A stretch of DNA of 64,000 nucleotides, taken from NCBI GenBank assembly GCA_964019135.1, contig OZ025248.1, positions 50,399,670 to 50,463,669 of the forward strand, in the 5' to 3' direction. The notes under the pieces were generated by a model. The model made no database searches, was not told the DNA's origin, and was given only the letters and a program-made list of their open reading frames with translations. The stretch is from Arenicola marina (taxonomy: Eukaryota; Annelida; Polychaeta; Arenicolidae). This document shows positions 20,301-59,340 of the stretch, piece by piece. Numbering within the stretch: the stretch's first letter is position 1; each line of letters begins with the position of its first letter. The translations under genes and the position numbers were made by a program.

Positions 20301-23300
20301 AGGAGTCCAGCCCATGTATCAGCATGCCAGTACTGCCACCCTACAAGGGGTCCAGCCCATGTATCAGCATGTCAGTACTGCCACCCTACAAGGAGTCCAG
20401 CCCATGTATCAGCACGCCAGTACTGCTACCCTACAAGGAGTCCAGCCCATGTATCAGCATGCCAGTACTGCCACCCTACAAGGAGTCCAGCCCATGTATC
20501 AGCACGCCAGTACTGCTACCCTACAAGGAGTCCAGCCCATGTATCAGCATGCCAGTACTGCCACACTACAAGGAGTCCAGCCCATGTATCAGCATGCCAG
20601 TACTGCCACCCTACAAGGAGTCCAGCCCATATATCAGCTTGCCAGTACTGCCACCCTACAAGGAGTCCAGCCCATGTATCAGCATGCCAGTACTGCCACC
20701 CTACAAGGGGTCCAGCCCATGTATCAGCATGCCAGTACTGCCACCCTAAAAGGAGTCCAGCCCATGTATCAGCATGCCAGTATTGCCACCCTACAAGGGG
20801 TCCAGCCCATGTATCAGCATGCCAGTACTGCCACCCTACAAGGGGTCCAGCCCATGTATCAGCATGCCAGTACTGCCACCCTACAAGGGGTCCAGCCCAT
20901 GTATCAGCATGCCAGTACTGCCACCCTACAAGGGGTCCAGCCCATGTATCAGCATGCCACTACTGCCACCCTACAAGGAGTCCAGCCCATGTATCAGCAT
21001 GCCAGTACTGCCACCCTACAAGGGGTCCAGCCCATGTATCAGCATGCCAGTACTGCCACCCTACAAGGGGTCCAGCCCATGTATCAGCATGCCAGTACGG
21101 CCACCCTACAAGGGGTCCAGCCCATGTATCAGCATGCCACTACTGCCACCCTACAAGGAGTCCAGCCCATGTATCAGCATGCCAGTATTGCCACCCTACA
21201 AGGGGACCAGCCCATGTATCAGCATGCCAGTACTGCCACCCTACAAGGGGTCCAGCCCATGTATCAGCATGCCAGTACTGCCACCCTACAAGGGGTCTAG
21301 CCCATGTATCAGCATGCCAGTACTGCCACCCTACAAGGGGTCCAGCCCATGTATCAGCATGCCAGTACTGCCACCCTACAAGGGGTCCAGCCCATGTATC
21401 AGCATGCCAGTACTGCCACCCTACAAGGAGTTTAGCCCATGTATCAGCATGCCAGTACTGCCACCCTACAAGGGGTCTAGCCCATGTATCAGCATGCCAG
21501 TACTGCCACCCTACAAGGGGTCCAGCCCATGTATCAGCATGTCAGTACTGCCACCCTACAAGGAGTCCAGCCCATGTATCAGCATGCCAGTACTGCCACC
21601 CTACAAGGGGTCCAGCCCATGTATCAGCATGTCAGTACTGCCACCCTACAAGGAGTCCAGCCCATGTATCAGCATGCCAGTACTGCCACCCTACAAGGAG
21701 TTTAGCCCATGTATCAGCATGCCAGTACTGCCACCCTACAAGGAGTCCAGCCCATGTATCAGCATGTCAGTACTACCACCCTACAAGAAGTCCAGCCCAT
21801 GTATCAGCACGCCAGTACTGCCACCCTACAAGGAGTCCAGCCCATGTATCAGCATGCCAGTACTGCCACCCTACAAGGGGTCCAGCCCATGTATCAGCAT
21901 GCCAGTACTGCCACCCTACAAGGAGTCCAGCCCATGTATCAGCATGCCAGTACTGCCACCCTACAAGGGGTCCAGCCCATGTATCAGCATGTCAGTACTG
22001 CCACCCTACAAGGAGTCCAGCCCATGTATCAGCACGCCAGTACTGCTACCCTACAAGGAGTCCAGCCCATGTATCAGCATGCCAGTACTGCAACCCTACA
22101 AGGAGTCCAGCCCATGTATCAGCACGCCAGTACTGCTACCCTACAAGGAGTCCAGCCCATGTATCAGCATGCCAGTACTGCCACCCTACAAGGAGTCCAG
22201 CCCATGTATCAGCATGCCAGTACTGCCACCCTACAAGGAGTCCAGCCCATATATCAGCTTGCCAGTACTGCCACCCTACAAGGGGTCCAGCCCATGTATC
22301 AGCATGCCAGTACTGCCACCCTATAAGGAGTCCAGCCCATGTATCAGCATGCCAGTACTGCCACCATACAAGGAGTCCAGCCTGTGTATCAGCATGCCAG
22401 TACTGCCACCCTACAAGGAGTCCAGCCCATGTATCAGCATGCCAGTACTGCCACCCTACAAGGAGTCCAGCCCATATATCAGCTTGCCAGTACTGCCACC
22501 CTACAAGGGGTCCAGCCCATGTATCAGCATGCCAGTACTGCCACCATACAAGGAGTCCAGCCTGTGTATCAGCATGCCAGTACTGCCACCCTACAAGGAG
22601 TCCAGCCCATGTATCAGCATGCCAGTACTGCCACCCTACAAGGGGTCCAGCCCATGTATCGGCATGCCAGTACTGCCACCCTACAAGGAGTCCAGCCCAT
22701 GTATCAGCATGCCAGTACTGCCACCCTACAGGGAGTCCATCCCATGTATCAGCATGCCAGTACCGCCACCCTACAAGGAGTCAAGCCCATGTATCAGCAT
22801 GCCAGTACTGCCACCCTACAAGGAGTCCAGCCCATGTATCAGCATGCCAGTACTGCCACCCTACAAGGGGTCCAGCCCATGTATCAGCATGCCAGTACTG
22901 CCACCCTACAAGGGGTCCAGCCCATGTATCAGCATGCCAGTACTGCCACCCTACAAGGGGTCCAGCCCATGTATCAGCATGCCACTACTGCCACCCTACA
23001 AGGAGTCCAGCCCATGTATCAGCATGCCAGTATTGCCACCCTACAAGGGGTCCAGCCCATGTATCAGCATGCCAGTACTGCCACCCTACAAGGGGTCCAG
23101 CCCATGTATCAGCATGCCAGTACTGCCACCCTACAAGGGGTCTAGCCCATGTATCAGCATGCCAGTACTGCCACCCTACAAGGGGTCCAGCCCATGTATC
23201 AGCATGCCAGTACTGCCACCCTACAAGGGGTCCAGCCCATGTATCAGCATGCCAGTACTGCCACCCTACAAGGAGTTTAGCCCATGTATCAGCATGCCAG

Positions 23301-26300
23301 TACTGCCACCCTACAAGGGGTCTAGCCCATGTATCAGCATGCCAGTACTGCCACCCTACAAGGGGTCCAGCCCATGTATCAGCATGTCAGTACTGCCACC
23401 CTACAAGGAGTCCAGCCCATGTATCAGCATGCCAGTACTGCCACCCTACAAGGGGTCCAGCCCATGTATCAGCATGTCAGTACTGCCACCCTACAAGGAG
23501 TCCAGCCCATGTATCAGCATGCCAGTACTGCCACCCTACAAGGAGTTTAGCCCATGTATCAGCATGCCAGTACTGCCACCCTACAAGGAGTCCAGCCCAT
23601 GTATCAGCATGTCAGTACTACCACCCTACAAGAAGTCCAGCCCATGTATCAGCACGCCAGTACTGCCACCCTACAAGGAGTCCAGCCCATGTATCAGCAT
23701 GCCAGTACTGCCACCCTACAAGGGGTCCAGCCCATGTATCAGCATGCCAGTACTGCCACCCTACAAGGAGTCCAGCCCATGTATCAGCATGCCAGTACTG
23801 CCACCCTACAAGGGGTCCAGCCCATGTATCAGCATGTCAGTACTGCCACCCTACAAGGAGTCCAGCCCATGTATCAGCACGCCAGTACTGCTACCCTACA
23901 AGGAGTCCAGCCCATGTATCAGCATGCCAGTACTGCCACCCTACAAGGAGTCCAGCCCATGTATCAGCACGCCAGTACTGCTACCCTACAAGGAGTCCAG
24001 CCCATGTATCAGCATGCCAGTACTGCCACCCTACAAGGAGTCCAGCCCATGTATCAGCATGCCAGTACTGCCACCCTACAAGGAGTCCAGCCCATATATC
24101 AGCTTGCCAGTACTGCCACCCTACAAGGGGTCCAGCCCATGTATCAGCATGCCAGTACTGCCACCCTATAAAGAGTCCAGCCCATGTATCAGCATGCCAG
24201 TACTGCCACCATACAAGGAGTCCAGCCTGTGTATCAGCATGCCAGTACTGCCACCCTACAAGGAGTCCAGCCCATGTATCAGCATGCCAGTACTGCCACC
24301 CTACAAGGAGTCCAGCCCATATATCAGCTTGCCAGTACTGCCACCCTACAAGGGGTCCAGCCCATGTATCAGCATGCCAGTACTGCCACCATACAAGGAG
24401 TCCAGCCTGTGTATCAGCATGCCAGTACTGCCACCCTACAAGGAGTCCAGCCCATGTATCAGCATGCCAGTACTGCCACCCTACAAGGGGTCCAGCCCAT
24501 GTATCGGCATGTCAGTACTGCCACCCTACAAGGAGTCCAGCCCATGTATCAGCATGCCAGTACTGCCACCCTACAGGGAGTCCATCCCATGTATCAGCAT
24601 GCCAGTACCGCCACCCTACAAGGAGTCAAGCCCATGTATCAGCATGCCAGTACTGCCACCCTACAAGGAGTCCAGCCCATGTATCAGCATGCCAGTACTG
24701 CCACCCTACAAGGAGTCCAGCCCATGTATCAGCATGCCAGTACTGCCACCCTACAAAAAGTCCAGCCCATGTATCAGCATGCCAGTACTGCCACCCTACA
24801 AGGAGTCCAGCCTGTGTATCAGCATACCAGTACTGCCACCCTACAAGGAGTCCAGCCCATGTATCAGCATGCCAGTACTGCCACCCTACAAGGAGTCCAG
24901 CCCATGTATCAGCATGCCAGTACTGCCACCCTACAAGGAGTCCAGCCTGTGTATCAGCATACCAGTACTGCCACCCTACAAGGAGTCCAGCCCATGTATC
25001 AGCATGCCAGTACTGCCACCCTACAAGGAGTCCAGCCCATGTATCAGCATGCCAGTACTGCCACCCTACAAGGAGTCCAGCCCATGTATCAGCATGCCAG
25101 TACTGCCAGCCTACAAGGAGTCCAGCCTGTGTATCAGCATACCAGTACTGCCACCCTACAAGGAGTCCAGCCCATGTATCAGCATGCCAGTACTGCCACC
25201 CAACAAGGAGTGCAGCCCATGTATCAGCATGCCAGTACTGCCACCCTACAAGGGGTCCAGCCCATGTATCAGCATACCAGTACTGCCACCCTACAAGGAG
25301 TCCAGCCCATGTATCAGCATGCCAGTACTGCCACCCTACAAGGAGTGCAGCCCATGTATCAGCATGCCAGTACTGCCACCCTACAAGGGGTCCAGCCCAT
25401 GTATCAGCATGCCAGTACTGCCACCCTACAAGGGGTCCAGCCCATGTATCAGCATGCCAGTACTGCCACCATACAAGGAGTCCAGCCTGTGTATCAGCAT
25501 GCCAGTACTGCCACCCTACAAGGAGTCCAGCCCATGTATCAGCATGCCAGTACTGCCACCCTACAAGGAGTCCAGCCCATGTATCAGCATGCCAGTACTG
25601 CCACCCTACAAGGGGTCCAGCCCGTGTATCAGCATGCCAGTATTGTCACCCTACAAGGAGTCCAGCCCATGTATCAGCATGCCAGTACTGCCACCCTACA
25701 AGGAGTCCAGCCTGTGTATCAGCATGCCAGTACTGCCACCCTACAAGGAGTCCAGCCCATGTATCAGCATGCCAGTACTGCCACCCTACAAGGGGTCCAG
25801 CCCATGTATCGGCATGCCAGTACTGCCACCCTACAAGGAGTCCAGCCCATGTATCAGCATGCCAGTACTGCCACCCTACAGGGAGTCCATCCCATGTATC
25901 AGCATGCCAGTACCGCCACCGTACAAGGAGTCAAGCCCATGTATCAGCATGCCAGTACTGCCACCCTACAAGGAGTCCAGCCCATGTATCAGCATGCCAG
26001 TACTGCCACCCTACAAAAAGTCCAGCCCATGTATCAGCATGCCAGTACTGCCACCCTACAAGGAGTCCAGCCTGTGTATCAGCATACCAGTACTGCCACC
26101 CTACAAGGAGTCCAGCCCATGTATCAGCATGCCAGTACTGCCACCCTACAAGGAGTCCAGCCCATGTATCAGCATGCCAGTACTGCCACCCTACAAGGAG
26201 TCCAGCCTGTGTATCAGCATACCAGTACTGCCACCCTACAAGGAGTCCAGCCCATGTATCAGCATGCCAGTACTGCCACCCTACAAGGAGTCCAGCCCGT

Positions 26301-28696
26301 GTATCAGCATGCCAGTACTGCCACCCTACAAGGAGTCCAGCCCATGTATCAGCATACCAGTACTGCCACCCTACAAGGAGTCCAGCCCATGTATCAGCAT
26401 GCCAGTACTGCCACCCTACAAGGAGTCCAGCCCGTGTATCAGCATACCAGTACTGCCACCCTACAAGGAGTCCAGCCCATGTATCAGCATGCCAGTACTG
26501 CCACCCTACAAGGAGTCCAGCCCATGTATCAGCATGCCAGTACTGCCACCCTACAAGGAGTCCAGCCCATGTATCAGCATACCAGTACTGCCACCCTACA
26601 AGGGGTCCAGCCCATGTATCAGCATGCCAGTACTGCCACCCAACAAGGAGTGCAGCCCATGTATCCATGCCAGTACTGCCACCCTACAAGGGGTCCAGCC
26701 CATGTATCAGCATACCAGTACTGCCACCCTACAAGGAGTCCAGCCCATGTATCAGCATGCCAGTACTGCCACCCAACAAGGAGTGCAGCCCATGTATCCA
26801 TGCCAGTACTGCCACCCTACAAGGGGTCCAGCCCATGTATCAGCATACCAGTACTGCCACCCTACAAGGAGTCCAGCCCATGTATCAGCATGCCAGTACT
26901 GCCACCCTACAAGGAGTGCAGCCCATGTATCAGCATGCCAGTACTGCCACCCTACAAGGGGTCCAGCCCATGTATCAGCATACCAGTACTGCCACCCTAC
27001 AAGGGGTCCAGCCCATGTATCAGCATACCAGTACTGCCACCCTACAAGGAGTCCAGCCCATGTATCAGCATGCCAGTACTGCCACCCTACAAGGGGTCCA
27101 GCCCATATATCAGCTTGCCAGTACTGCCACCCTACAAGGGGTCCAGCCCATGTATCAGCATACCAGTACTGCCACCCTACAAGGGGTCCAGCCCATGTAT
27201 CAGCATGCCAGTACTGCCACCCTACAAGGGGTCCAGCCCATGTATCAGCATGCCAGTACTGCCACCATACAAGGAGTCCAGCCTGTGTATCAGCATGCCA
27301 GTACTGCCACCCTACAAGGAGTCCAGCCCATGTATCAGCATGCCAGTACTGCCACCCTACAAGGAGTCCAGCCCATGTATCAGCATGCCAGTACTGCCAC
27401 CCTACAAGGGGTCCAGCCCGTGTATCAGCATGCCAGTATTGTCACCCTACAAGGAGTCCAGCCCATGTATCAGCATGCCAGTACTGCCACCCTACAAGGA
27501 GTCCAGCCCATGTATCAGCATGCCAGTACTGCCACCCTACAAGGAGTCCAGCCCATGTATCGGCATGCCAGTACTGCCACCCTACAAGGGGTCCAGCCCA
27601 TGTATCGGCATGCCAGTACTGCCACCCTACAAGGAGTCCAGCCCATGTATCAGCATGCCAGTACTGCCACCCTACAGGGAGTCCATCCCATGTATCAGCA
27701 TGCCAGTACCGCCACCCTACAAGGAGTCAAGCCCATGTATCAGCATGCCAGTACTGCCACCCTACAAGGAGTCCAGCCCATGTATCAGCATGCCAGTACT
27801 GCCACCCTACAAGGAGTCCAGCCCATGTATCAGCATGCCAGTACTGCCACCCTACAAGGAGTCCAGCCTGTGTATCAGCATACCAGTACTGCCACCCTAC
27901 AAGGAGTCCAGCCCATGTATCAGCATGCCAGTACTGCCACCCTACAAGGAGTCCAGCCCATGTATCAGCATGCCAGTACTGCCACCCTACAAGGAGTCCA
28001 GCCTGTGTATCAGCATACCAGTACTGCCACCCTACAAGGAGTCCAGCCCATGTATCAGCATGCCAGTACTGCCACCCTACAAGGAGTCCAGCCCATGTAT
28101 CAGCATGCCAGTACTGCCACCCTACAAGGAGTCCAGCCCATGTATCAGCATGCCAGTACTGCCAGCCTACAAGGAGTCCAGCCTGTGTATCAGCATACCA
28201 GTACTGCCACCCTACAAGGAGTCCAGCCCATGTATCAGCATGCCAGTACTGCCACCCAACAAGGAGTGCAGCCCATGTATCAGCATGCCAGTACTGCCAC
28301 CCTACAAGGGGTCCAGCCCATGTATCAGCATACCAGTACTGCCACCCTACAAGGAGTCCAGCCCATGTATCAGCATGCCAGTACTGCCACCCTACAAGGA
28401 GTCCAACCCATGTATCAGCATGCCAGTACTGCCACCCTACAAGGGGTCCAGCCCATGTATCAGCATGCCAGTACTGCCACCCTACAAGGGGTCCAGCCCA
28501 TGTATCAGCATGCCAGTACTGCCACCCTACAAGGGGTCCAGCCCATGTATCAGCATGCCAGTACTACCACCCTACAAGGAGTCCAGCCCATGTATCAGCA
28601 TGCCAGTACTGCCACCCTACAAGGGGTCCAGCCCATGTATCAGCATGCCAGTACTGCCACCCTACAAGGAGTCCAGCCCATGTATCAGCATGCCAC
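17348..28696. repeat. Giant minisatellite: about 252 tandem copies of a 45-bp unit
   Basis: The unit is GCCAGTACTGCCACCCTACA then AGGGGTCCAGCCCATGTATC then AGCAT, 45 bp. Almost all copies are exactly 45 bp; the main variant changes AGGGGTCC to AGGAGTCC. Two copies (near 26664 and 26799) lack 2 bp. Because 45 is divisible by three and the consensus has no stop in any forward frame, open frames of hundreds to thousands of codons arise: one starts at 17349 and runs to 29426 (4,025 codons), reading CHPTRGPAHVSACQY repeats, then other frames, then the 36-bp array. Stops appear only through point changes such as GGTCTAG. No flanking exon, signal peptide or known domain is seen. Longer blocks are duplicated within the array. 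I read it as non-coding satellite-like DNA; transcription cannot be excluded. Confidence 0.97.
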
Positions 28697-29745
28697 TTGT
28701 GATGATACCCCTGTGTCTGTGAATCAGGGTGCCTGTGATGACACCCTTGTGTCTGGGAATCAGGGTGTTTGTGATGACACCCCTATGTCTGTGAATCAGG
28801 GTAGTTGTGATGACACCCCTGTGTCTGTAAATCAGGGTACTTGTGATGACACCCCTGTGTCTGTGAATCAGGGTGTTTGTGATGACACCCTTGTGTCTGT
28901 GAATCAGGGTGCTTGTGATGACACCCCTGTGTCTGTAAATCAGGGTACTTGTGATGACACCCCTGTGTCTGTGAATCAGGGTACTTGTGATGATACCCCT
29001 GTGTCTGTGAATCAGGGTGCTTGTGATGACACCCCTGTGTCTGTGAATCAGGGTGATTGTGATGACACACTTGTGTCTGGGAATCAGGGTGTTTGTGATG
29101 ATACCCCTGTGTCTGTGAATCAGGGTGTTTGTGATGACACCCCTGTGTCTGTGAATCAGGGTGTTTGTGATGATACCCCTGTGTCTGTGAATCAGGGTGT
29201 TTGTGATGACACCCCTGTGTCTGTGAATCAGGGTGTTTGTGATGATACCCCTGTGTCTGTGAATCAGGGTGTTTGTGATGACACACTTGTGTCTGGGAAT
29301 CAGGGTGTTTGTGATGATACCCCTGTGTCTGTGAATCAGGGTGTTTGTGATGACGCCCCTATGTCTGTGAATCAGGGTACTTGTGATGATACCCTGCATG
29401 TGTCTGTTAGAGGAGGGTGTTTGTGATGATACCCCTGTGTCTGTGAATCAGGGTGCCTGTGATGATACCCCTGTGTCTGAATCAGGGTGCCTGTGATGAT
29501 ACCCCTGTGTCTGTGAATCAGGGTGTTTGTGATGATACCCCTATGTCTGTGAATCAGGGTGCCTGTGATGACACCCCTGTGTATGAGAATCAGGGTGTTT
29601 TGGATGATACCCCTGTGTCTGTGAATCAGGGTGCCTGTGATTATACCCCTGCATGTGTCTGTGAATCCGGTGCTTGTGATAATACCTCTGTGTCTGTGAA
29701 TCAGGGTACCTGTGATGATACTACTGTATCTGTGACTCAGTGTGA
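28697..29745. repeat. Minisatellite: about 29 copies of a 36-bp unit, abutting the 45-bp array
   Basis: The unit is TGTGATGACACCCCTGTGTC then TGTGAATCAGGGTGTT, 36 bp, encoding CDDTPVSVNQGV in one frame. Units become irregular after about 29395 (short insertions and deletions), and the array fades near 29745. It begins immediately after the last 45-bp unit, with no unique spacer. Confidence 0.95.
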
Positions 29746-33857: not shown

Positions 33858-35303
33858 TGAGTGAGGCTTATAACATAGCGGCGGTACGGTAACCCGGGGT
33901 TTGGTGGCGAGACGGGACTATGTCGGTCAGTACCAGGCTCTGAGTGAGCCTTATAACATAGCGGCGGTACGGTAACCCGGGGTTTGGTGATGAGACGGGT
34001 CCATGTCTGCCAGTACCAGGCTCTGAGTGAGGCTTATAACATAGCGGCGGTACAGTAACCCGGGGTTTGGTGGCGAGACGGGACCACATAGGTCAGTACC
34101 AGGTTCTGAGTGAGCCTTATAACATAGCGGCGGTACGGTAACCCGGGGTTTGGTGAGAAGACGGGACTATAATTGTCAGTACTAGGCTCTGAGTGAGCCT
34201 TATAACATTGCGGCGGTACGGTAACCCGGGGTTTGGTGGCGAGACGGGACCACATCAGTCAGTACCAGGCTCTGAGTGAGCCTTAGAACATAGCGGCGGT
34301 ACGGTAACCCGGGGTTTGGTGATGAGACGGGTCCATGTCTGCCAGTACCAGGCTCTGAGTGAGGCTTATAACATAGCGGCGGTACAGTAACCCGGGGTTT
34401 GGTGGCGAGACGGGACCACATAGGTCAGTACCAGGTTCTGAGTGAGCCTTATAACATAGCGGCGGTACGGTAACCCGGGGTTTGGTGAGAAGACGGGACT
34501 ATAATTGTCAGTACTAGGCTCTGAGTGAGCCTTATAACATTGCGGCGGTACGGTAACCCGGGGTTTGGTGGCGAGACGGGACCACATCAGTCAGTACCAG
34601 GCTCTGAGTGAGCCTTAGAACATAGCGGCGGTACGGTAACCCGGGGCTTGGTGGCGAGACGGGACCATGTCTGCCAGTACCAGGCTCTGAGTGAGCCTTA
34701 GAACATAGCGGCGGTACGGTAACCCGGGGTTTGGTGGCGAGACGGGACCATGTCTGCCAGTACCAGGCTCTGAGTGAGGCTTATAACATAGCGGCGGTAC
34801 GGTAACCCGGGGTTTGGTGGCGAGACGGGACCATGTCTGTCAGTACCAGGGTCTGAGTGAGCCTTATAACATAGCGGCGGTACGGTAACCCGGGGTTTGG
34901 TGGCGAGACGGGACCACATAGGTCAGTACCAGGGTCTGAGTGAGGCTTATAACATAGCGGCGGTACGGTAACCCGGGGTTTGGTGGCGAGACGAGACCAC
35001 ATAGGTCAGTACCAGGCTCTGAGTGAGGCTTATAACATTGCGGCGGTACGGTAACCCGGGGTTTGGTGACGAGACGGGACCACATAGGTCAGTACCAGGG
35101 TCTGAGTGAGGCTTATAACATAGCGGCGGTACGGTAACCCGGGGTTTGGTGGCGAGACGGGACCACATAGGTCAGTACCAGGGTCTGAGCGAGGCTTATA
35201 ACATAGCGGCGGTACGGTAACCCGGGGTGGATAGACGGGACTATGTCTGTCAGTACAAGCTAGGCTCTGAGTGAGGCTGATAACATAGCGACGGAGCGGT
35301 AAC
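33858..35303. repeat. Minisatellite with an 83-bp unit (about 17 copies)
   Basis: Each unit carries TTATAACATAGCGGCGGTAC, then GGTAACCCGGGGTTTGGTGG, then a variable middle and CAGTACCAGGCTCTGAGTGA. A four-unit block of 332 bp is repeated (about 34087-34418 and 34419-34750), marked by the ATAATTGTCAGTACTAGG and CATTGCGGCGG variants. Open 73-codon minus-strand frames spaced 83 bp apart are by-products of the repeat. Confidence 0.95.
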
Positions 35304-36608
35304 CCACAAATTGTCAATTGAATCCACAAAATATAGTTTGTCGCCCTATTGCCAGGGCTAAATAAAATTTAATAGAGGACTTACAAACATTAGCGAATTT
35401 CTTTTCGATATATCTCATTCGACGACGCCATCATTGGCAAACTGTTGACTAAACCTAGAGGTGTCGATCCTTATACAACAGATTATGACTGAACTCTTAG
35501 GGAAACAAATCATAAATACTTCTTGAGTTAACGCTGTGCAGCAAGCAAGTGAATGAAAGGCAATAGTTATTGTTAAAATTGACGTTATTTGAATATGAAG
35601 CTTGCGTATTTGAATTGTGTTTTTAGATGTTATGGAATGGCCACAGCACAAAAAAAACATGCATTAACATTTACCTTCCGATTTCCCAAAAGTCAAGAGT
35701 TTTGCATGATACAAGAAATCACTAAATATCATCACATATCCTTCAATCTTTATTGAAGATATACAGTGCGGCAATCTTACGATCTACTGATGGACGTGAT
35801 TTCCAGCATCAATCTCACAGACAAACTTTTATCAGTTTCACACCTAATCCCATTCAGCGATAGGAAACTGATTAGCAATTAAAAGTTATTACATGTACTT
35901 GGTATCAATAGATAATAAAGAACGTGATAAGATTATATAATGTTAAAAAAATAGTACACCGCTTTTAAAATTGGATAAAACTAAAACTTTGATGGTAATC
36001 TTTAAGGGTAATTTTTGAAATACATCAAAAAATGATTAATCTTTGCCAGAAAACGGATAAAACCATCTATGTGATAAACAAATAAAATAAAAAAAAAACG
36101 TCCAACATTCCTTAAAAGCAAAAGTATACGACGGCATCTGCGTTTACAATAGTTGAATCTTGAATCTAAGTTCAAATCACTGGTACGGTATAATCCAATG
36201 ATGTGAAATATAAATAATAAAGTTATCACAGGTACGTCCTATATACCTTGCAAAAATGCGACACATTAAATATTAATCCTGTTTGCATCTAAATTATGTA
36301 TCACAGTATCATATCATAACGCTTGGAAACTAAAACGTTCGGAGATCTCTACGGAGATATACGTACCTGTATATATGCTGCTAGTAACAGACAAATATTT
36401 GGGCCCGTACGTGACACTAAAACGATTACACAGTTTGATACAACTGATTTGTGAAGCACTCTTGGACAAAACATTAATATCAACTCCACAATATAAAGAA
36501 CTTGAAGACATGAGACAGGTCAGCAGCAGTTCTTCGCGTTACCGAAGGTCCATTTTTCTGTCTGAATCACAGTCTTGCTGCTGTAAATAGTATCGCAGAA
36601 CACAAGTG
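35304..36608. other. Region downstream of UBXN11 (3' UTR and intergenic)
   Basis: AT-rich. It probably includes the UBXN11 3' UTR; a minus-strand AATAAA lies at 35749-35754. A plus-strand frame at 36375-36590 has no recognised domain. Confidence 0.4.
35675..35747 (-). CDS. Possible coding exon of an unrecognised gene
   Basis: A 73-bp minus-strand segment reads IEGYVMIFSDFLYHAKLLTF and then GKSE, ending at a GTAAAT donor. The would-be acceptor (AATAAAG) is weak and coincides with a polyadenylation-like signal, so this may be UBXN11 3' UTR. The exit phase fits the candidate exon at 30485-30575. Confidence 0.25.
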
Positions 36609-38616: not shown

Positions 38617-41600
38617 TGGAGGCGCACGTTGCATGCCGAACTGATACATTTATAATGATTTCCTCTCTGTCGATAGTTTTTTGACAATACTAATTACTAA
38701 AAAAGTAAAAACAAAAATTTTAAGGACTGAAAAGAAATAAGATTTACCAAGTTTGCACAAAAAACCGTCAGATACTCTTATTCATATAAAGACGCCATTT
38801 CATTCTATGAATTGAATTTCAGCAATCCACTGTCAATAATATGACAAGCTGAAGTGTCACCGTGATTACGACGCCGTCTGGATACTTGTGTTGCAGTTCC
38901 GAAGGAAAGAATCCGTCCATGAAGTCCTGGACACAAGCCTGCGTACTCGCATCAGTGAAGGGCCTGAAGGGCCCCTCAAACATGAATATGCCGTTGGCAA
39001 AGAGCGTCAAAGGAATATCCTCGTTCATCTGGAAATGATCATGGACAATGGCATTGACTGGTCAAATATACATGTACACGTATATAACACACAGCTGTTT
39101 ACACAATGTGGGTCAGCCTAAGAAAATAAAAATACCAACATATGTATCAACGTTTGGTAAAGGCGGCAAATATTTAGGTAGAACTTATTTAATTATAACT
39201 ATGTTGGTCAATTTAGTTAAAGCAATAATGAAGAATTAAGCTGATGTTCGGAATAATGAAATATTCATTACTCTTACACAGAAGCGTTTGACACACGATT
39301 TCGAAATTTTATAATGTGAACTGCGCGGTCCCTTTGAGCCTGAGCTGTTACGTGTTACCAGCAGGGGAAACGTTACTGACCCTGAGCCGTTACGTGTTAC
39401 CAGCAGGGGAAACGTTACTGACCCTGAGCCATTATGTGTTCACCAGCAGGGGAAACGTTACTGACCCTGAGCCATTATGTGTTCACCAGCAGGGGAAACG
39501 TTACTGACCCTGAGCCGTTACGTGTTACCAGCAGGGGAAACGTTACTGACCTTGAGCCATTATGTGCTCACCAGCAGGGGAAACGTTACTGACCCTGAGC
39601 CGTTACGTGTTACCAGCAGGGGAAACGTTACTGACCCTGAGCCGTTATGTGTTCACCAGCAGGGGAAACGTTACTGACCCTGAGCCATTATGTGTTCACC
39701 AGCAGGGGAAACGTTACTGACCCTGAGCCGTTACGTGTTACCAGCAGGGGAAACGTTACTGACCCTGAGCCGTTATGTGTTCACCAGCAGGGGAAACGTT
39801 ACTGACCCTGAGCCATTATGTGTTCACCAGCAGGGGAAACGTTACTGACCCTGAGCCGTTACGTGTTACCAGCAGGGGAAACGTTACTGACCCTGAGCCG
39901 TTATGTGTTCACCAGCAGGGGAAACGTTACTGAGCCTGAGTCGTTATGTGTTCACCAGCACGGGAAACGATACTGACCCTGAGCCGTTATGTGTTCACCA
40001 GCAGGGGAAACGTTACTGACCCTGAGCCATTATCTGTTCACCAGCAGGGGAAACGTTACTGACCCTGAGCCATTATCTGTTCACCAGCAGGGGAAACGTT
40101 ACTGACCCTGAGCCATTATCTGTTCACCAGCAGGGGAAACGTTACTGACCCTGAGCCATTATCTGTTCACCAGCAGGGGAAACGTTAATGACCCTGAGCC
40201 ATTATCTGTTCACCAGCAGGGGAAACGTTACTGACCCTGAGCCGTTATGTGTTCACCAGCAGGGGAAACGTTACTGACCCTTAACCATTATGTGTTCACC
40301 AGCAGGGGAAACGTTACTGACCCCGAGCCGTTATGTGTTCACCAGCAGGGGAAACGTTACTGACCCTGAGTCGTTATGTGTTCACCAGCAGGGGAAACGT
40401 TACTGACCCTGAGCCGTTATGTGTTCACCAGCAGGGGAAACGTTACTGACCCTGAGTCATTATGTGTTCACCAGCAGGGGAAACGTTACTGACCCTGAGC
40501 CGTTATGTGTTCACCAGCAGGGGAAACGTTACTGACCCTGAGCCGTTATGTGTTCACCAACAGGGGAAACGTTACTGACCCTGAGTCATTATGTGTTCAC
40601 CAGCAGGGGAAACGTTACTGACCCTGAGCCGTTATGTGTTCACCAGCAGGGGAAACGTTACTGACCCTGAGCCGTTATGTGTTCACCAGCAGGGGAAACG
40701 TTAGACCCGGAGTCGTTATGTGTTCACCAGCAGGGGAAACCTTACTGACCCTGAGCCGTTATGTGTTCACCAGCAGGGGAAACGTTACTGACCCTGAGCC
40801 GTTATCTGTTCACCAGCAGGGGAAACGTTACTGACCCTGAGCCATTATCTGTTCACCAGCAGGGGAAAAGTTACTGACCCTGAGCCGTTATGTGTTCAAC
40901 AGCAGGGGAAACGTTACTGACCCGGAGTCATTATGTGTTCACCAGCAGGGGAAACGTTACTGACCCTGAGCCGTTATGTGTTCACCAGCAGGGGAAACGT
41001 TACTGACCCTGAGCCGTTATGTGTTCACCAGCAGGGGAAACGTTAGACCCGGAGTCGTTATGTGTTCACCAGCAGGGGAAACCTTACTGACCCTGAGCCG
41101 TTATGTGTTCACCAGCAGGGGAAACGTTACTGACCCTGAGCCGTTATTTGTTCACCAGCAGGGGAAAAGTTACTGACCCTGAGCCGTTATGTGTTCACCA
41201 GCAGGGGAAACGTTACTGACCCGGAGTCTCGCCCCGTCAACGGTGTGGTGTATGTGAGACATTCCCTCCCCGGCCAGCACGTTTAGTTCTTTTATATTCT
41301 CCACTATGAGGTCGTAATCCACCTTTAGCGGAGAATCGTCGACAACCGACTCGGCTAGATAAAATAAGAAAATGCAAACATCAGACAGTTCGTGCGAATA
41401 CAAATAAATAGTTACTCATTACATGTTAGTTACAACATTCGTACGAGCCACAGTATAATTTTTTGCACTTAGCTTGGTTTCATCGCTGAGTTGTCTCTAC
41501 TCGCAAATATATACCACGAATACTGCCTTTCTGTCGCTTTAAAATGGACCAAAAAAAATATATATATTGGAATTAATATGTTGAAAGTACCTTCGGATCT

Positions 41601-44600: not shown

Positions 44601-47600
44601 TACGATTCCATTAGCAATGTAATCAATTACGATTACGATTACATTGCTTTTAAAACCAATGTAATCGACTACGATTACGATTACATGGAAAATGTAATCG
44701 ATTACAATCGATTACGATTATCCCATATCTGATAGACAGCAGTGTGTCTTCACTTAAAGGGAGCCGTCAGCCTGGTCTCTAACGTTGCTAGACCGATTCT
44801 TATAATACCCAAGTGTCTATCCTCCAAATTACAGAATTTTCCGTCCTATCGGTAGCATCAGAAATTTAGAAGTGATCGGCCACGATTTCGCCGCTTAACA
44901 AGGTGGCAGCCGTTTTTGGAGGTGTGTCCGCGATTGGCCAATCAGGAGGCGATGCTTTAATTAAATTAAAACCGGAAGTGACGCATTAAGTGACAATGAG
45001 AGCACGTGTTCATCACAAATATAAATAGCTGCGATTCTAATTATTGGTTCTTTACGAAGACAATCGCTGCAAGCCCTATCCATGAAACACTAGTGCACTG
45101 CGCGGCTTGGAACGGCCTCTATTGCCTCCACTTTTAAGAGTTTTTCACGCGAGATAACTTCCAGTTATAACGCAAGACGGCGCCACATGAAGGGTCACAA
45201 TATACAGCATAATGGCGCGCTGCTCGACATAGATGGGGTCGGGTTGCCTTAATTGTTTTCTCCTCACTAGTCGGCCACAACGAAGCATTAACACTCGCCA
45301 ATTTAAATTGAATATGTAAACTTACGGTGCAGATCGCGCTTAGATTAGGTTTTACACCCGCTTTAAGCAACATAGGTAATTTCAATATCTCTCGATATGT
45401 GATACCAAAACGCTTGAACAGAATCTGTCGGTATGTGAAAAATCGGTTTAATAAGAACAACGAGCGCGAATATCTTGATAAAATAAGTGTAACGAACCTT
45501 TTGCATCTCGCAGTATGACGACCTTTTCTTCTAGAATTCTAATCGCTTTGTCCTGAAAACGCAATTAAATGAGATAGATAAGAAATGTTTCCAGGTAGGA
45601 TTACCTGATACAGAACATTGTAAAGAAGTATCATAATAAACAATCAAACTTATCAAACGATTCAGTCACGTTTTTCATGTACCTTTTCAGAGATTTCCCT
45701 AGCTTGAAACTGAATCCTCTGCTCTAAGACGCTGAGACGCGTCATCATCAGACTCATCAGGTCGGCGTCACTGGGACCTGTCCGGCGAATTAGTCATCAT
45801 TTAACGTTAGAAAGAAACCCATTTAATACAGTGTCAATGTGGAATATGGCGTTTTTGTATAGTACCCAAGAAGGACATTCTTATCTTTAAGAAGTTAGAA
45901 AGTTCGCCATTGTAACATTATCAGTTGTACTTTACAAGCGATGCGTTCGATATTCACTTCCTATGTAAGTATTGCATTAACTGTATTTGAATGGTGCTTT
46001 ATACCTGTTTTAGGCATTTTACCGGCCTTCATCTTCACGTCTTTCAGTTTGGAAGCCGCCATGTCGCCAGTGATCTCTTCCAATAGCTTAGATTCATCAG
46101 CTTGGGAGAATACAAGTTCACAAATGACAAGTTCACAAATGGATACGGCAATCCAGTAAGTTTGTTCGTCATTGGAAGACACAGAATTATATTGTTCAGA
46201 TCGTTTCGTAAGTAATAAAAAGACGGTAGTTGCTAAATGACGTTTACTCCGTCAGCAAAATCAATCAAGTAATAAATCTATCTCTGGCGAGAACAAACAT
46301 GTATATACTTATTCAGGACAACAAGAACATGCGTCTCACTTAGGGAAAATCGTTCTGTTAATAGCCACCCTGTCATCCCTAATTCCAAAATGAAATACGT
46401 ACCCCACACTCCTGGCTATGTTGGTACATACCGGAATATTCTGTGTAACGGAATGGTACATTTCTTCTTGCTCCATTCCTGAAATAAAATATAAAATACA
46501 GTTCCATGGACAAAAAAAGACAACCATGACAGCAGTTCATGGATCATCGTGTAGTGTCCGGCGTGACATGTGCGGGACGGGGTGGAGGCTGATCATCTCA
46601 CCACCAGCCACTAAGCCCCTGCTCTCTGATTGGCTGGCTCCACAGAGCCAGAGATCGGGTTGCACTGTCGCCCGGACCTGGGCTCCCGGGGTGATCGCCG
46701 TAATTAGGAGACGAGGGAACCAGAGACTACCGATAAATATATATATCAGTTCAGTTTTCGTAGGTTAGAAATAGTTTACCGGTGGAAGTTATCAACGAAT
46801 CTTGCTACGTGTTAAGATGTTGAAGCCAAGATTCTATGCCTATGGCCGCGCTGAGACAATTAAGGCAATGCAAAAATGTCCAGGATCGCGAGCTAAGACA
46901 ACACAGTGAAAAGTGTCCCTCGTCGCGAGCCAAGACAAGGAAGTCAAAGATTGTCTATGGCCGCGATCTAAGACAAGGAAATGACAGAGTGTCTACGGCC
47001 GCAAGCTGAGACAAGGCAATGCAAAAGTGTCCATGGTCGCAAAACAAGACAAAGCAGTGAACAAACTGTCCATGGCTGCGAGCCAAGACAAGGCAGTAAA
47101 AAACTGTCCAAGGCTGCGAGCTAAGACAAGGCAGTGAAAAAGTGTCCCTCGTCGCGAGCCAACACAAGGAATTAAGTCAAAGATTGTCTATGGCCGCGAG
47201 CTAAGACAAGGAAGTGACAAAGTGACCATGATCACGAGCTGATACAAAGCAATACAAAAGGGTCCATGGTTACAAAGCAGTGAAAAAGTGACCCTCGTCG
47301 CAAACACGTCTCCATGGCTGCGAGCTCAGACAACGCAGTGAAAAAGTGTCCATGGCTGCGAGCCAAGACAAGGCAGTGAAAGTGTCCATGGCTGCATGCG
47401 AGCCAAGACAAGGCAGTGAAAAAGTGTCCATGGCTGCGAGCCAAGACAAGGCAGAGAAAGTGTCCATGGCTACATGCGAGCCAAGACAAGGTAGTGAAAA
47501 AGTGTCCATGGCTGCGAGCCAAGATAAGGCAGTGAAAAAGTGTCCATGGCTGCGAGCCAAGGCAAGGCAGTGAAAGTGTCCATGGCTGCGAGCCAAGACA

Positions 47601-48747
47601 AGGCAGCGAAAAAGTGCCCATGGCTGCGAGCCAAGACAAGGCAGTGAAAAAGTGTCCATGGCCTGCGAGCTAAGACAAGGCAGTGAAAAAGTGTCCATGC
47701 CTGCGAGCCAAGACAAGGCAGTGAAAAAGTGTCTATGGCTTCGAGCCAATTAGACAAGACAGTGAAAGTGTCCATGGCTGCGAGCCAAGACAAGGCAGTG
47801 AAAGTGTCCATGACGGCGAGCCAAGACAAGGCAGTGAAAAAGTGTCCATGGCTGCGAGCCAAGACAAGGCAGTGAAAAAGTGTCCATGGCTGCGAGCCAA
47901 GACAAGGCAGTGAAAAAGTGTCCATGGCTGCGAGCCAAGACAAGGCAGTGAAAAAGTGTCCATGGCCTGCGAGCTAAGACGAAGAAGTGACAAAGTGTCC
48001 ATGGTCACGAGTTGATACAAGGCAATGCAAAAGTGTCCATGGTCGCGAAACTCGACAAAGCCGTGAAAAACTGTCCATGGCTGCGAGCCAAGACAAGGCA
48101 GTAAAAAAGTGTCCATGCATGGCTGCGAGCCAAGAGAAGACAGTGAAAAAGTGGCCATGGCCTGCAAGCCAAGACAAGGCAGTGAAAAAGTGTCCATGCA
48201 TGGCTGCGAGCCAAGAGAAGACAGTGAAAAAGTATCCATGGCCTGCAAGCCTCTCTTTTTATTTGGTTGAAATTCACACAGTGGGCCACACTCATTGTGT
48301 AAATACACTAATCGTGGTTACTGGTACCTGCTGCATCAATTAGTATAAAGGAGCAATAATTTGCATGCCAAGTAACAAGCCACATTGGTCCTGATTATTA
48401 TGGACACCTCCAATTAAAATGGTCTGGAGTCAACCATGCTTTGTTGGCACTTTTCTTTGGCAGTTCTGTCTGTTAAAGTCTGGACTCACCCTGCCTAATT
48501 CTCACTGATAAAGTTGGATCAACATGCAGTTGATGTATATAATTGACTTGACATTCATTTCTTAGACTGTTCACATACCCAAACAAGTTAAACAAATTCA
48601 GTGTTAGAAAATGCATGTGAAACACAACACTTACCCAGTATTAGGTCAACATGATAAAGCTATTAGTTGGATCAGGTCTATAACTTACCCTTGAAGTGAG
48701 TTAATAGGCCTCTTCACTTTCTTCAAACTTGACAGCGGACTACTCAT
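36609..48747 (-). CDS. UBXN11: UBX domain protein 11 (SEP and UBX domains), 14 coding exons
   Basis: Exons in transcript order: 48747-48689, 46478-46432, 46100-46005, 45777-45683, 45552-45498, 42634-42558, 41906-41780, 41354-41221, 39028-38861, 38512-38347, 38095-37986, 37677-37613, 37232-37083, 36744-36609. Every intron is GT-AG, all phases agree, total 494 codons plus stop (human about 520). The N-terminus MSSPLSSLKK matches the human start (MSSPLASLSK). Residues about 70-150 are coiled-coil, followed by METFLSDYGMVWIG; the SEP domain is about 232-296 (PLTLFANGIFMFEGPFRP, FMDGFFPSELQHKYPDG), then KLPANVIKQGKVIDIR (about 350-367), and a C-terminal UBX domain about 408-492 (TLRILSEN, IMSTFPSRVLDDDALSLRDL). 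The human protein (Socius) binds Rnd GTPases, and UBX domains generally bind p97/VCP; it lacks here the Pro/Gly-rich human tail. Introns 1 and 8 carry minisatellites with splice-site-like units, and intron 5 holds stacked transposons. Confidence 0.96.
38589..38614. repeat. (TA)n microsatellite in UBXN11 intron 9
   Basis: A short TA/AT run about 77 bp upstream of the exon-10 acceptor at 38512 on the minus strand. Confidence 0.9.
39331..41226. repeat. Minisatellite, 43-bp unit (about 44 copies), in UBXN11 intron 8 and reaching the exon-8 splice donor
   Basis: The plus-strand unit is CCGTTATGTGTTCACCAGCA then GGGGAAACGTTACTGACCCT then GAG; a 42-bp form with CGTGTTACC is frequent at the low-coordinate end. 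Read in gene sense, each unit contains CTCAGG/GTCAGTAACG (slash at the splice point), close to the real exon-8 end CTCCGG/GTCAGTAACG at 41221. Some units (for example near 40921 and 41044) carry exactly the ACTCCGG form. The last unit overlaps the exon end itself. Confidence 0.97.
42203..42502. mobile_element. MITE family with 6-bp TSD, copy 2 (UBXN11 intron 6)
   Basis: A 300-bp copy nearly identical to 7406-7711, with the same ends CATACACGCCAACC and GGTTGGCATGTATG. It is flanked by the perfect 6-bp duplication TGGTAA at 42197-42202 and 42503-42508. The G run is shorter than in copy 1. Confidence 0.9.
43291..44731. mobile_element. Non-autonomous hAT-type element with nested SINE (UBXN11 intron)
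   Basis: Termini CAGGCATGGG and, inverted, CAGATATGGG (8 of 10 match), flanked by a perfect 8-bp duplication ATAGACAG at 43283-43290 and 44732-44739, as in hAT transposons. Subterminal regions (43310-43380, 44585-44720) are packed with TAATCGATTACGATTAC repeats. No transposase frame is present. A tRNA-derived SINE has inserted at 43894-44135, so the hAT element is the older of the two. Confidence 0.9.
43894..44135 (-). mobile_element. tRNA-derived SINE, copy 2, inserted in the hAT element
   Basis: The reverse complement matches copy 1 (2827-3084) from the GGGGCCGGCGC head to the (AACC)n tail. It has a perfect 11-bp duplication AATGCTATAGG at 43883-43893 and 44136-44146. The B box reads GGTTCGAGCCC in the sense orientation. 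Confidence 0.93.
44758..45362. mobile_element. TTAA-flanked MITE, copy 2 (UBXN11 intron)
   Basis: A 605-bp copy of the element at 30902-31578, same orientation, with TTAA on both sides (44754-44757 and 45363-45366). It lies 14 bp beyond the hAT element's duplication and 131 bp short of exon 5 (45552-45498). Several internal length differences separate the two copies. Confidence 0.82.
46840..48255. repeat. Minisatellite, 38-bp unit (about 37 copies), in UBXN11 intron 1
   Basis: The plus-strand unit is TGTCCATGGCTGCGAGCCAA then GACAAGGCAGTGAAAAAG. In gene sense it reads CTTTTTCACTGCCTTGTCTT then GGCTCGCAG/CCATGGACA, a pyrimidine-rich stretch ending in an acceptor-like AG followed by an ATG in good context. 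Units near both ends are more diverged. Reverse-strand open frames of 60-190 codons in the array are by-products. Confidence 0.95.
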
Positions 48748-57097: not shown

Positions 57098-57770
57098 AAA
57101 GCTCTAATTTTTGAACTAAAAGCTCCATTTTGCCACCAGAAAGCCATATTTTGCCAACAAAAAGCTCCATTTTGGCAACAGAAAGCGCTATTTTGTCAAC
57201 ATGAAGCTCCATTTTGCCCACAGAAAGCGATATTTAATCAATAGAAAGCTCCATTTTGCCAACAGAAAGCGCTATTTTGTCAACAGAAAGCTCCATTTTG
57301 CCCACAGAAAGCGCTATTTTGTCAACAGGAAGCTCCATTTTGCCACCCAGAAAGCTCCATTTTGCCACCAGAAAGCGCTATTTTGCCGCCAGAAAGCTCC
57401 ATTTTGCCAGCAGAAAGCGCTATTTTGCCAACAGAAAGCTCCATTTTTCCCACAGGAAGCGCTATTTTGTCAACAGGAAGCTCCATTTTGCCCACGAAAA
57501 GCGCTATTTTATCAACAGAAAGCTCCATTTTGCCAACAGAAAGCTCTATTGGGCATAAGTTGCTCTTCCAGGCTGCCAGCTATGCTGAATTGCCCTCTGA
57601 AGGCCATATTTGGCCCGCCGAAAGCTCTATTTACCTCAAATTATGCCTTAAAAGCTCTATTTGGGCCAAATTGTATGTGTAATGGCCTACTTAGCCAAAT
57701 TTACTCACTAAAACTCTATTTTGCCCGCTGAAACCTTTATTTGACCCAACTTGTCAACTGAATGCACTAA
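57098..57770. repeat. Minisatellite of about 21-bp units
   Basis: Alternating AGAAAGCTCCATTTTGCCAAC and AGAAAGCGCTATTTTGTCAAC units, about 22 clear copies to 57560, then more diverged ones. The 21-bp period keeps frames open (for example 57201-57731), which explains the long LHFANRKRYFVNRK-type frames; these are not called as genes. Confidence 0.9.
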
Positions 57771-59340
57771 TTGACCCCTGATATCCCAATTTGACCTCTA
57801 ATATCCAGATTTGACCTCTCGGATCCAGATTGACCTCTCAGATCCAGATTTGATCCCTCAGATCCAGATTTCACCCTTCAGATCAAGATTTTATCCCTCA
57901 GATCCAGATATGACCTCTAATATCCAGATTTGACCCCTCAGATCCAGATTTGACCCTCAGATCCAGATTTGATCCCTCAGATCCAGATTTGACCTCTTAG
58001 ATCCAGATTTGACCTCTCAGATCCAGATTGACCCCTCAGATCCAGATTTGACCGTCAGATCCAGATTTGACCCTCAGATCCAGATTTGACCCTTTAGATC
58101 CAGATTTGATCCCTCAGATCCAGATTTGACCTCTCAGATCCAGATTGACCCCTCAGATCCAGATCTGACCCTCAGATCCAGATTTGATCCATCAGATCCA
58201 GATTTGACCTCTTAGATCCATATTGACCCCTCAGATCCAGATTTGACCCTCAGATCCAGATTTGACCCTTCAGATCCAGATTTGACCCTTCAGATCCAGA
58301 TTTGATCCCTCAGATCCAGATTTGACCGTCGGATCCAGATTCGACCCTTCAGATCCAGATTTGATCCCTCAGATCCAGATTTGACCTCTCAGATCCAGAT
58401 TGACCCCTCAGATCCAGATTTGACCCTCAGATCCAGATTTGATCCATCAGATCCAGATTTGACCTCTTAGATCCATATTGACCCCTCAGATCCAGATTTG
58501 ACCCTCAGATCCAGATTTGACCCTTCAGATCCAGATTTGATCCCTCAGATCCAGATTTGACCTCTCAGATCCAGATTGACCCCTCAGATCCAGATTTGAC
58601 CCTTAGATCCAGATTTGATCCCTCTGATCCAGATTTGACCTCTTAGATCCATATTGACCCCTCAGATCCAGATTTGACCCTCAGATCCAGATTTGATCCT
58701 TCAGATCCACATTGGACCTCTCAGATCCAGAATTGACCTCTCAGATCCAGATTGATCCCTCAGATCCAGATATCATTCACAGAGGCCTATTTTGCCTCTC
58801 AGATCCAGATTGACCTCACAGCTCCCTATTCGACCTGGACATCCACATTTGCCCTCTCAGATCCCGAGTAGTCATCTGGCATCCCCACTAGACCCGTCAG
58901 ACCCAGATTTAATCTGTCGGATCCAGATTGGACTCATATGATTCTTATTGACTCCCTCATAACCTGATGGAAGCCGCCAGATAGAGATTTGACAACTAGG
59001 ATGCAGATTGACCCGTCGCATCCCTATTTGACCTTCAAATCCCGATTGAACCTTGGTGATCCTGATTGAACATTGCTAATCCAGATTGAACCCAACGAAA
59101 CCAGCTTTGACCCGTCGTATACCAATGTGTCCCACGGATCCCGTTTCGAACCGTCGAATTCGACCCTGCACATCTCGATTTGTCCCACACAACCCTAATC
59201 GACCCATCAGATCCCCATTGGTCCCACGAATCCTGATTAGAGCTCCCGCATCCCTATTCGAACACCCTGCGGACCCTCACTTGCGGAAGACAACCCAAGG
59301 CATCCTCGATACACGCCTGATCACTTCAGAGGGGTGATTT
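57771..59340. repeat. Minisatellite of 18-20-bp units (CAGATCCAGATTTGACCCT)
   Basis: About 50 clear copies to 58790, then a trail of increasingly diverged units (AATCCCGATTGAACC, GACCCATCAGATCCCC) to about 59340. Each unit contains GATC. It follows the 21-bp array without a unique spacer. Confidence 0.92.

What the first reader, a model, noticed from the sequence alone, without database searches (positions are those of the whole stretch)
39331..41354. A minisatellite that repeats a splice donor about 44 times inside UBXN11 intron 8
In gene sense the real exon-8 end reads CTCCGG/GTCAGTAACG. Every 43-bp unit of the adjoining array carries CTCAGG/GTCAGTAACG or the identical ACTCCGG/GTCAGTAACG, and the last unit runs into the exon itself. 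The array therefore seems to have grown from the exon-intron boundary, giving a ladder of donor-like sites behind the true one. Use of them would extend exon 8 in 43-bp steps (mostly frame-shifting), or they could act as decoys or U1-binding sites.
Basis: partly seen in the sequence, partly recalled or inferred. Interest (0 to 1): 0.78.

Follow-up and report, generated by a model that had tools for sequence, protein, structure and literature searches.

The report
Splice-donor minisatellite in an annelid gene
A stretch of worm DNA that marks where an exon stops has been copied about 44 times in a row just behind the real mark, and the same thing turns up behind exons of several other genes of this worm, so its cells presumably have to keep picking the right mark out of a row of near-identical ones.

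Summary
The array is real: 43 bp x 44.2 at 39335-41226. Its periodicity runs through the true donor CGG|GTCAGT (41221/41220); 39 of 44 units repeat GTCAGT. The next exon carries a SEP domain. Splicing from a later donor would put a stop into the extended exon for 38 of 39 and shift the frame for the other.

This matches the amphioxus 'mirages', tandem repeats of exon-intron boundaries (PMC3087553), but the host looks like an annelid (mitochondrial gene order), and it is not a one-off. A ladder of three strong donors occurs 20,987 times in the genome; three control ladders 4,794, 1,421 and 7,296 times. Of 11 ladder arrays sampled, 9 edges were reached and 6 start at an apparent exon end, including ALDH1L1, cytoplasmic dynein and NCLX, whose units copy 19-28 nt of conserved coding sequence. 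Of 60 sampled myosin/kinesin exons, 5 end in a donor-carrying array.

Best reading: recurrent tandem duplication across exon edges, tolerated because the first donor is used. No transcripts could be examined. Known kind; apparently new host group and scale.

The parts
41221..41354 (-).
   Evidence: open frame preceded by AG and ended by CGG|GTCAGT; ends in phase 0 with the next exon
41215..41220 (-). True 5' splice site GTCAGT, the first rung of the ladder
   Evidence: among the GTCAGT sites the only one that keeps the reading frame into the SEP exon; fits the donor consensus GTYAGK reported for earthworm metallothionein genes (PMC12783039, passages)
39335..41226 (-). 43-bp x 44 minisatellite; unit in gene sense GTCAGTAACGTTTCCCCTGCTGGTGAACACATAACGGCTCAGG
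41221..41228 (-). Exon tail GACTCCGG shared with array units 4, 7 and 12 (exact), two mismatches to the commonest unit
39375..41177 (-). 39 further GTCAGT donor-like sites, 36 as AGG|GTCAGT (approximate span)
   Evidence: approximate recalled matrix 6.15 against 6.24 for the true site
39029..39334 (-). Non-repeated 3' part of the intron with the acceptor
38850..39028 (-). Next exon, SEP domain (end of exon approximate)
   Evidence: Pfam PF08059 E 6.7e-11, 43.1 bits against cut-off 27

Best explanation
The array is a mirage-type minisatellite: a short segment spanning the exon-intron edge was tandemly duplicated, then grew and was partly homogenised by ordinary minisatellite turnover. Copies behind the exon become intron as long as the first donor is used, so the array is tolerated although it repeats the donor. 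Shown: the register with the true donor, the ladder, the coding cost of using any later GTCAGT rung, and sister arrays in the same genome that contain coding exon ends. Inferred: that the first donor is the one used, through exon definition and first-come binding during transcription, and that the array has no function of its own.
For: Donors exactly 43 bp apart starting from the true one. Exon-identical units lie only among the 12 units nearest the exon. Sister arrays that copy exon tail exactly: ALDH1L1 19 nt, dynein heavy chain 27 nt, NCLX 28 nt, myosins 29 and 51 nt, open frames without a family match 25 and 15 nt; the first three tails are conserved to PDB proteins, so exon-to-array is the direction there. 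Donor ladders 20,987 against 4,794, 1,421 and 7,296 for three control motifs; 5 donor arrays in the first 1.76 Mb of C1 against 13 control arrays in its 77 Mb (a small sample from one chromosome end). 5 of 60 exons not chosen for arrays carry such an array. Amphioxus precedents are reported to splice normally (PMC3087553, PMC3902484; passages).
Against: At UBXN11 the copied exon tail is only 8 nt. Arrays are common in the sampled introns anyway: coverage 16.5-19.5% from 20 nt past the donor, and of the 12 exon ends inspected by eye 6 had an array at or near the donor whose unit shows no clear donor (L077, L079, L098, second exon of L099, L101, L103) and one was unclear (L104). The fraction of motif copies that open a ladder is 34% for the donor against 21% for its reversed control, a milder excess than the raw counts. 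Two of nine array edges showed no exon (L056, L057), and L061 was unclear. No RNA evidence. SRSF1 favours intron-proximal donors (PMC5585400, passages), the opposite of the assumed choice.
Confidence: 0.75

Rival explanations
1. The extra donors are used: transcripts with 43-nt steps arise and are destroyed by nonsense-mediated decay, so the array tunes expression or makes allele-dependent isoforms, as the human IFI6 minisatellite does on a small scale.
For: The 36 AGG rungs score close to the true site (6.15 against 6.24, approximate recalled matrix); 38 of 39 GTCAGT rungs would give stops in the extended exon. Human IFI6 uses two downstream repeat units as donors (PMC4526556, passage citing Turri 1995).
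Against: Amphioxus mirages are reported not to disturb splicing (PMC3087553, PMC3902484; passages). The true 9-mer pairs somewhat better with U1 in the duplex estimate (-7.0 against -5.6), and only 3 GT sites of the array score strictly at or above it. Similar ladders in dynein and ALDH1L1 would be costly if leaky (inference).
Confidence: 0.12
2. A plain intronic minisatellite that happened to spread up to the donor; the GTCAGT in the unit is coincidence or was spread into the splice site by conversion.
For: Only 8 exon nt are shared at this locus; intronic arrays are very common in the sample, also at exon ends without a donor in the unit (6 of 12 edges inspected); four donor-ladder cases copy only 1-4 nt of exon exactly (L055, L092, L094, L096).
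Against: The true donor is in exact register with the ladder; seven sister arrays carry 15 nt or more of exon tail.
Confidence: 0.15
3. The ladder is a functional U1 snRNP platform, for example protecting the intron from premature polyadenylation or raising splicing of this intron.
For: Some 40 donor-like sites in 1.9 kb; the donor ladder exceeds all three control motifs genome-wide.
Against: The pattern is explained by duplication alone; the unit sequences seen differ from gene to gene; no measurement.
Confidence: 0.04

Closest known systems
Amphioxus 'mirage' minisatellites (Adh3, TnC, globins BflGb6/BflGb9; PGBD5 repeats likened to them)
   Same: Tandem repeats that span an exon-intron boundary and repeat splice sites; both 5' and 3' boundaries occur; units of 10-72 bp in Adh3 and 150-160 bp in globins (PMC3087553, PMC3902484; passages).
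   Different: Host here appears to be an annelid; 44 units here and 46 donor-like decoys in the stretch read of L041, against 3 and 6 units in BflGb6; here also found in 5 of 60 exons not chosen for it.
Human IFI6 (G1P3, 6-16) minisatellite providing multiple splice donors (Turri et al. 1995; seen only as cited in PMC4526556 and PMC2572611)
   Same: A minisatellite repeats the donor.
   Different: There two downstream repeat units are used as donors in mRNA; use of later rungs is untested here.
Internal tandem repeats at human exon-intron boundaries that may form novel introns (PMC2812944, passages)
   Same: Minisatellite variation changes exon-intron structure.
   Different: Those are variable repeats in recently duplicated human genes, half of them in coding sequence; here the exon stays and the intron grows.
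Earthworm metallothionein first-intron minisatellites (PMC12783039, passages)
   Same: Annelid intronic tandem repeats; donor consensus GTYAGK fits GTCAGT.
   Different: The passages I saw do not report repeats that include the splice site.

Membership tests
Mirage minisatellite | Tandem repeat spans an exon-intron boundary | tested here: met
   periodicity runs through 41220/41221 into the last 5-8 exon nt
Mirage minisatellite | Units carry the splice dinucleotide/consensus | tested here: met
   39 of 44 units carry GTCAGT
Mirage minisatellite | Units carry recognisable exon sequence | tested here: inconclusive
   8 nt at UBXN11; 15-51 nt in seven of the eleven sister loci scored
Mirage minisatellite | Regular splicing is not disturbed | not testable with these tools
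   no transcripts available
Mirage minisatellite | Length instability between haplotypes or cells | not testable with these tools
   only one match of the exon in the assembly
Minisatellite with multiple used donors (IFI6 type) | Downstream repeat units are used as donors in mRNA | not testable with these tools
   no RNA data; coding outcome predicted to be harmful
Intron created by tandem duplication | Intron consists of the repeat and both splice sites lie in it | tested here: not met
   the acceptor lies in about 300 bp of non-repeated sequence

The most novel reading that the evidence does not exclude
In this annelid, exon ends are hot spots from which minisatellites grow: a few to nearly 20 percent of introns (5 of 60 sampled; interval) start with a ladder of copies of their own donor, and the spliceosome reliably takes the first rung. 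If so, one genome holds hundreds to thousands of natural competition experiments among near-identical 5' splice sites that differ mainly in order and distance (my extrapolation from 5 arrays in 1.76 Mb), and donor strength cannot be the deciding signal: in 10 of 12 loci scored at least one later rung reaches the true donor within 0.15 bit.
Probability: 0.35. Interest if true: 0.75.

Novelty: new member of a known kind. Interest (0 to 1): 0.55.

Why it matters
How a cell chooses one 5' splice site among several equal ones is an old question, studied (as I recall) mostly with built constructs. Here important genes (cytoplasmic dynein, myosins, ALDH1L1, a SEP-domain gene) each carry natural rows of donors like their own behind the true one, from 2 to 46 in the stretches read. 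Counting junctions along such rungs in existing or new RNA data would directly separate 'first transcribed wins' from 'closest to the acceptor wins' and from rules based on donor strength. It also suggests that mirages are not an amphioxus oddity and that in such genomes gene models and repeat masking at exon ends need care.

Tried and rejected
Amphioxus as the host: the first idea after meeting the mirage papers; a GFP-family search found nothing (weak, since no control genome rang either). The mitochondrial contig reads ND3-ND2-COX1-COX2-ATP8-COX3 with AGA as Ser and AAA as Lys, which fits annelids; only COX1 was identified by a profile, the other genes, the code and the annelid order are my recollection.

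Acceptor-side equivalent: ladder TTTTHCAGR gave 340+1391 against 397+371 for its reverse, and the two largest sets among the listed places also carry a GT donor; no clear acceptor excess. In the exon sample 3 of 60 acceptor edges against 8 of 60 donor edges by a mechanical rule, Fisher p 0.20; by eye 2 against 5, p 0.44: the donor bias there is not significant.

Other arrays of the window: no exon end noticed at their edges by eye; not tested systematically.

PDB search with the joined exon 8/9 protein found nothing. Pfam gave nothing for exon 8, nor for the presumed UBX exon, an upstream exon, and the dynein, L058 and L059 pieces; NCLX and lustrin matches stayed below their cut-offs.

The kinase family was a poor source of exons (best places mostly uninterrupted copies); myosin and kinesin were used instead. 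Of 210 matches (77 + 133) I dropped 8 before the sample: 5 on small contigs C390, C536, C504 and 3 with four or more stops; 202 went into, of which 60 exons (40 of 137 merged regions, shuffled order) were fetched.

The donor matrix used is an approximate recalled one.

Full report
What is there. On the minus strand the exon at 41354-41221 ends ...GAC GGG GCG AGA CTC CGG and is followed by GTCAGTAACG. A 43-bp minisatellite of 44.2 copies occupies 39335-41226. I split it into 44 units: most are 43 bp, two 41 bp, five 42 bp. The true donor at 41220 and the following ones at 41177, 41134 and 41091 are exactly 43 bp apart, so the true donor is the first rung of the ladder; 39 more GTCAGT sites follow, 36 preceded by AGG and one by CGG. 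The exon tail GACTCCGG recurs exactly only in units 4, 7 and 12, of which two have lost two bases of the donor. Two blocks of units (3-7 and 11-15) nearly repeat each other, a sign of block duplication.

The gene. The next exon begins at 39028 and its 63-residue translation matches Pfam SEP at 6.7e-11. UBXN11 is the likely name because flanking pieces resemble what I recall of the human protein, including GARLR at the exon end; no call confirms it, and Pfam did not recognise the presumed UBX exon. The exon gave a single match in the genome, and the 26 exact copies of a 29-nt core of the unit all lie in this array.

Coding cost. Splicing from any of the 39 later GTCAGT rungs would put a stop into the extended exon in 38 cases; the one other, the rung 43 nt downstream, shifts the frame and meets a stop in the next exon. 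By an approximate matrix the 36 AGG rungs score 6.15 against 6.24 for the true site; strictly at or above it lie 3 GT sites of the array. U1 duplex energies of the 9-mers favour the true site slightly (-7.0 against -5.6; the true site with longer context -8.9, not computed for the others). So strength alone hardly separates them.

The host. The window lies at C1:50399670-50463669 of an 867-Mb assembly in 762 contigs. Contig C762 (15,942 bp) carries a mitochondrial COX1; I read the translations around it as ND3, ND2, COX1, COX2, ATP8, COX3, with AGA as serine and AAA as lysine. That order is, from memory, the annelid one. A GFP-family search, meant as an amphioxus test, found nothing, but its control was silent as well.

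Known kind. Tandem repeats across exon-intron boundaries are known from amphioxus as 'mirages' (Adh3, globins, TnC; PGBD5 likened to them), and are reported not to disturb splicing (PMC3087553 and PMC3902484, passages). In human IFI6 two downstream repeat units serve as donors (PMC4526556, passages; the 1995 original is not held). Searches that joined annelid or polychaete terms with minisatellite or tandem-repeat and intron or splice terms, general searches on repeats or duplications at splice sites and two searches for 'mirage' listed no annelid example that I could see of a repeat including the splice site; I judged this from titles, abstract beginnings and, for PMC12783039 and PMC9977687, passages. 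The library lacks most subscription papers.

Not a one-off. The pattern of three strong donors CAGGTVAGT at 27-57 bp spacing occurs 10,154 + 10,833 times in the genome; its reversed control 2,410 + 2,384 times. Changing GT to GA gives 886 + 535, and the reverse of that 5,195 + 2,101. The controls vary widely, since a large array gives many matches, but the donor exceeds all three. The single motif occurs 62,558 times against 22,712 for its reverse, so 34% of donor motifs open such a ladder against 21% of control motifs: a clear but milder excess in a genome that is rich in arrays. For CAGGTAAGT at a period of 37-38 bp there are 114 matches against 1. By array rather than by match, 5 donor arrays lie in the first 1.76 Mb of C1 against 13 control arrays in its 77 Mb (ratio about 17, p 4e-5); the donor figure is a small sample from one end of one chromosome, because only the first places are listed.

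Edges of sampled ladder arrays. I took the 11 arrays among the listed places (five; six). For 9 the 5' edge was reached; for two (L053/L063, L054/L064) it was not. Six begin at an apparent exon end with the donor in register. L041 is ALDH1L1 (1e-24; FRYFAGWCDKIQ is identical to a solved 10-formyltetrahydrofolate dehydrogenase). L060 is cytoplasmic dynein heavy chain (1.2e-14). L062 is NCLX (4e-7). L055 is a cysteine-rich exon with a lustrin-type match below its cut-off, behind an exon with an antistasin domain. L058 and L059 are open frames without a family match. Exact copies of the exon tail inside the array measure 19, 27, 28, 3, 15 and 25 nt in the order just given. Because those tails encode conserved protein in the first three, the direction exon to array is firm there. 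L056 and L057 showed no exon, and L061 was unclear.

Exons not chosen for arrays. I inspected 12 exon ends with an array at or near the donor side. In 5 the donor lies inside the repeat (L080, L092, L094, L096, L099; 5 of 60, exact 95% interval 2.8-18%). Of these L080 and L099 copy 29 and 51 nt of exon exactly, L096 a longer stretch imperfectly and with partly decayed donors, and L092 and L094 only 4 and 1 nt. One was unclear (L104), and six had arrays whose unit shows no clear donor (L077, L079, L098, second exon of L099, L101, L103). By a mechanical TRF rule 8 of 60 donor edges and 3 of 60 acceptor edges are covered (not significantly different); two acceptor cases, L073 and L097, repeat the exon start. 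Array coverage is 9% in the last 10 exon nt and 16.5-19.5% from 20 nt into the intron; on the acceptor side it is 3.3% and 6.7-11.3%.

Donor strength. In 10 of 12 loci scored, UBXN11 included, at least one later rung reaches the true donor's score within 0.15 bit; the exceptions are L094 and L096. Published work says that SRSF1 favours the donor nearest the acceptor and hnRNP A1 the other (PMC5585400, passages), so exclusive use of the first rung, which these genes seem to need, is not self-evident and would be worth measuring.

Conclusion. The main addition is that this seems to be a genome-wide habit in the host, which looks like an annelid.

Noticed in passing
17358-28695 and 28696-29744: A 45-bp x 252 array with one frame free of stops for 3,779 codons on the + strand, directly abutting a 36-bp x 29 array.
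   Followed up: no
14440-15851, 33858-35305, 46862-48251, 57119-57550, 57771-58771: Five more minisatellites (43, 83, 38, 21 and 20 bp units) in the same 64 kb.
   Followed up: partly
G000 contigs C443, C465, C504, C330, C652, C390, C536: Kinase or kinesin frames interrupted only by TAA/TAG, as expected of a ciliate code: possible contaminant or symbiont contigs in the assembly.
   Followed up: no
L073 and L097: Acceptor-side mirages: the start of a myosin exon (85-bp unit) and of a kinesin exon (166-bp unit) repeated upstream of the exon.
   Followed up: partly
L041: The 39-bp ALDH1L1 unit is in frame and free of stops over the stretch translated (VSTARPLWCDKIQ repeated), so later rungs there would only add 13-residue blocks.
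   Followed up: no
G000:C3:2286213-2288094 and C3:3303360-3304684: Two places 1 Mb apart carry the same 47-bp unit TTTTACAGGTGTGTCGG..., which joins an acceptor-like and a donor-like site.
   Followed up: no
G000:C5:5402476-5437356: Five kinase copies of identical score at about 8.5-kb spacing.
   Followed up: no
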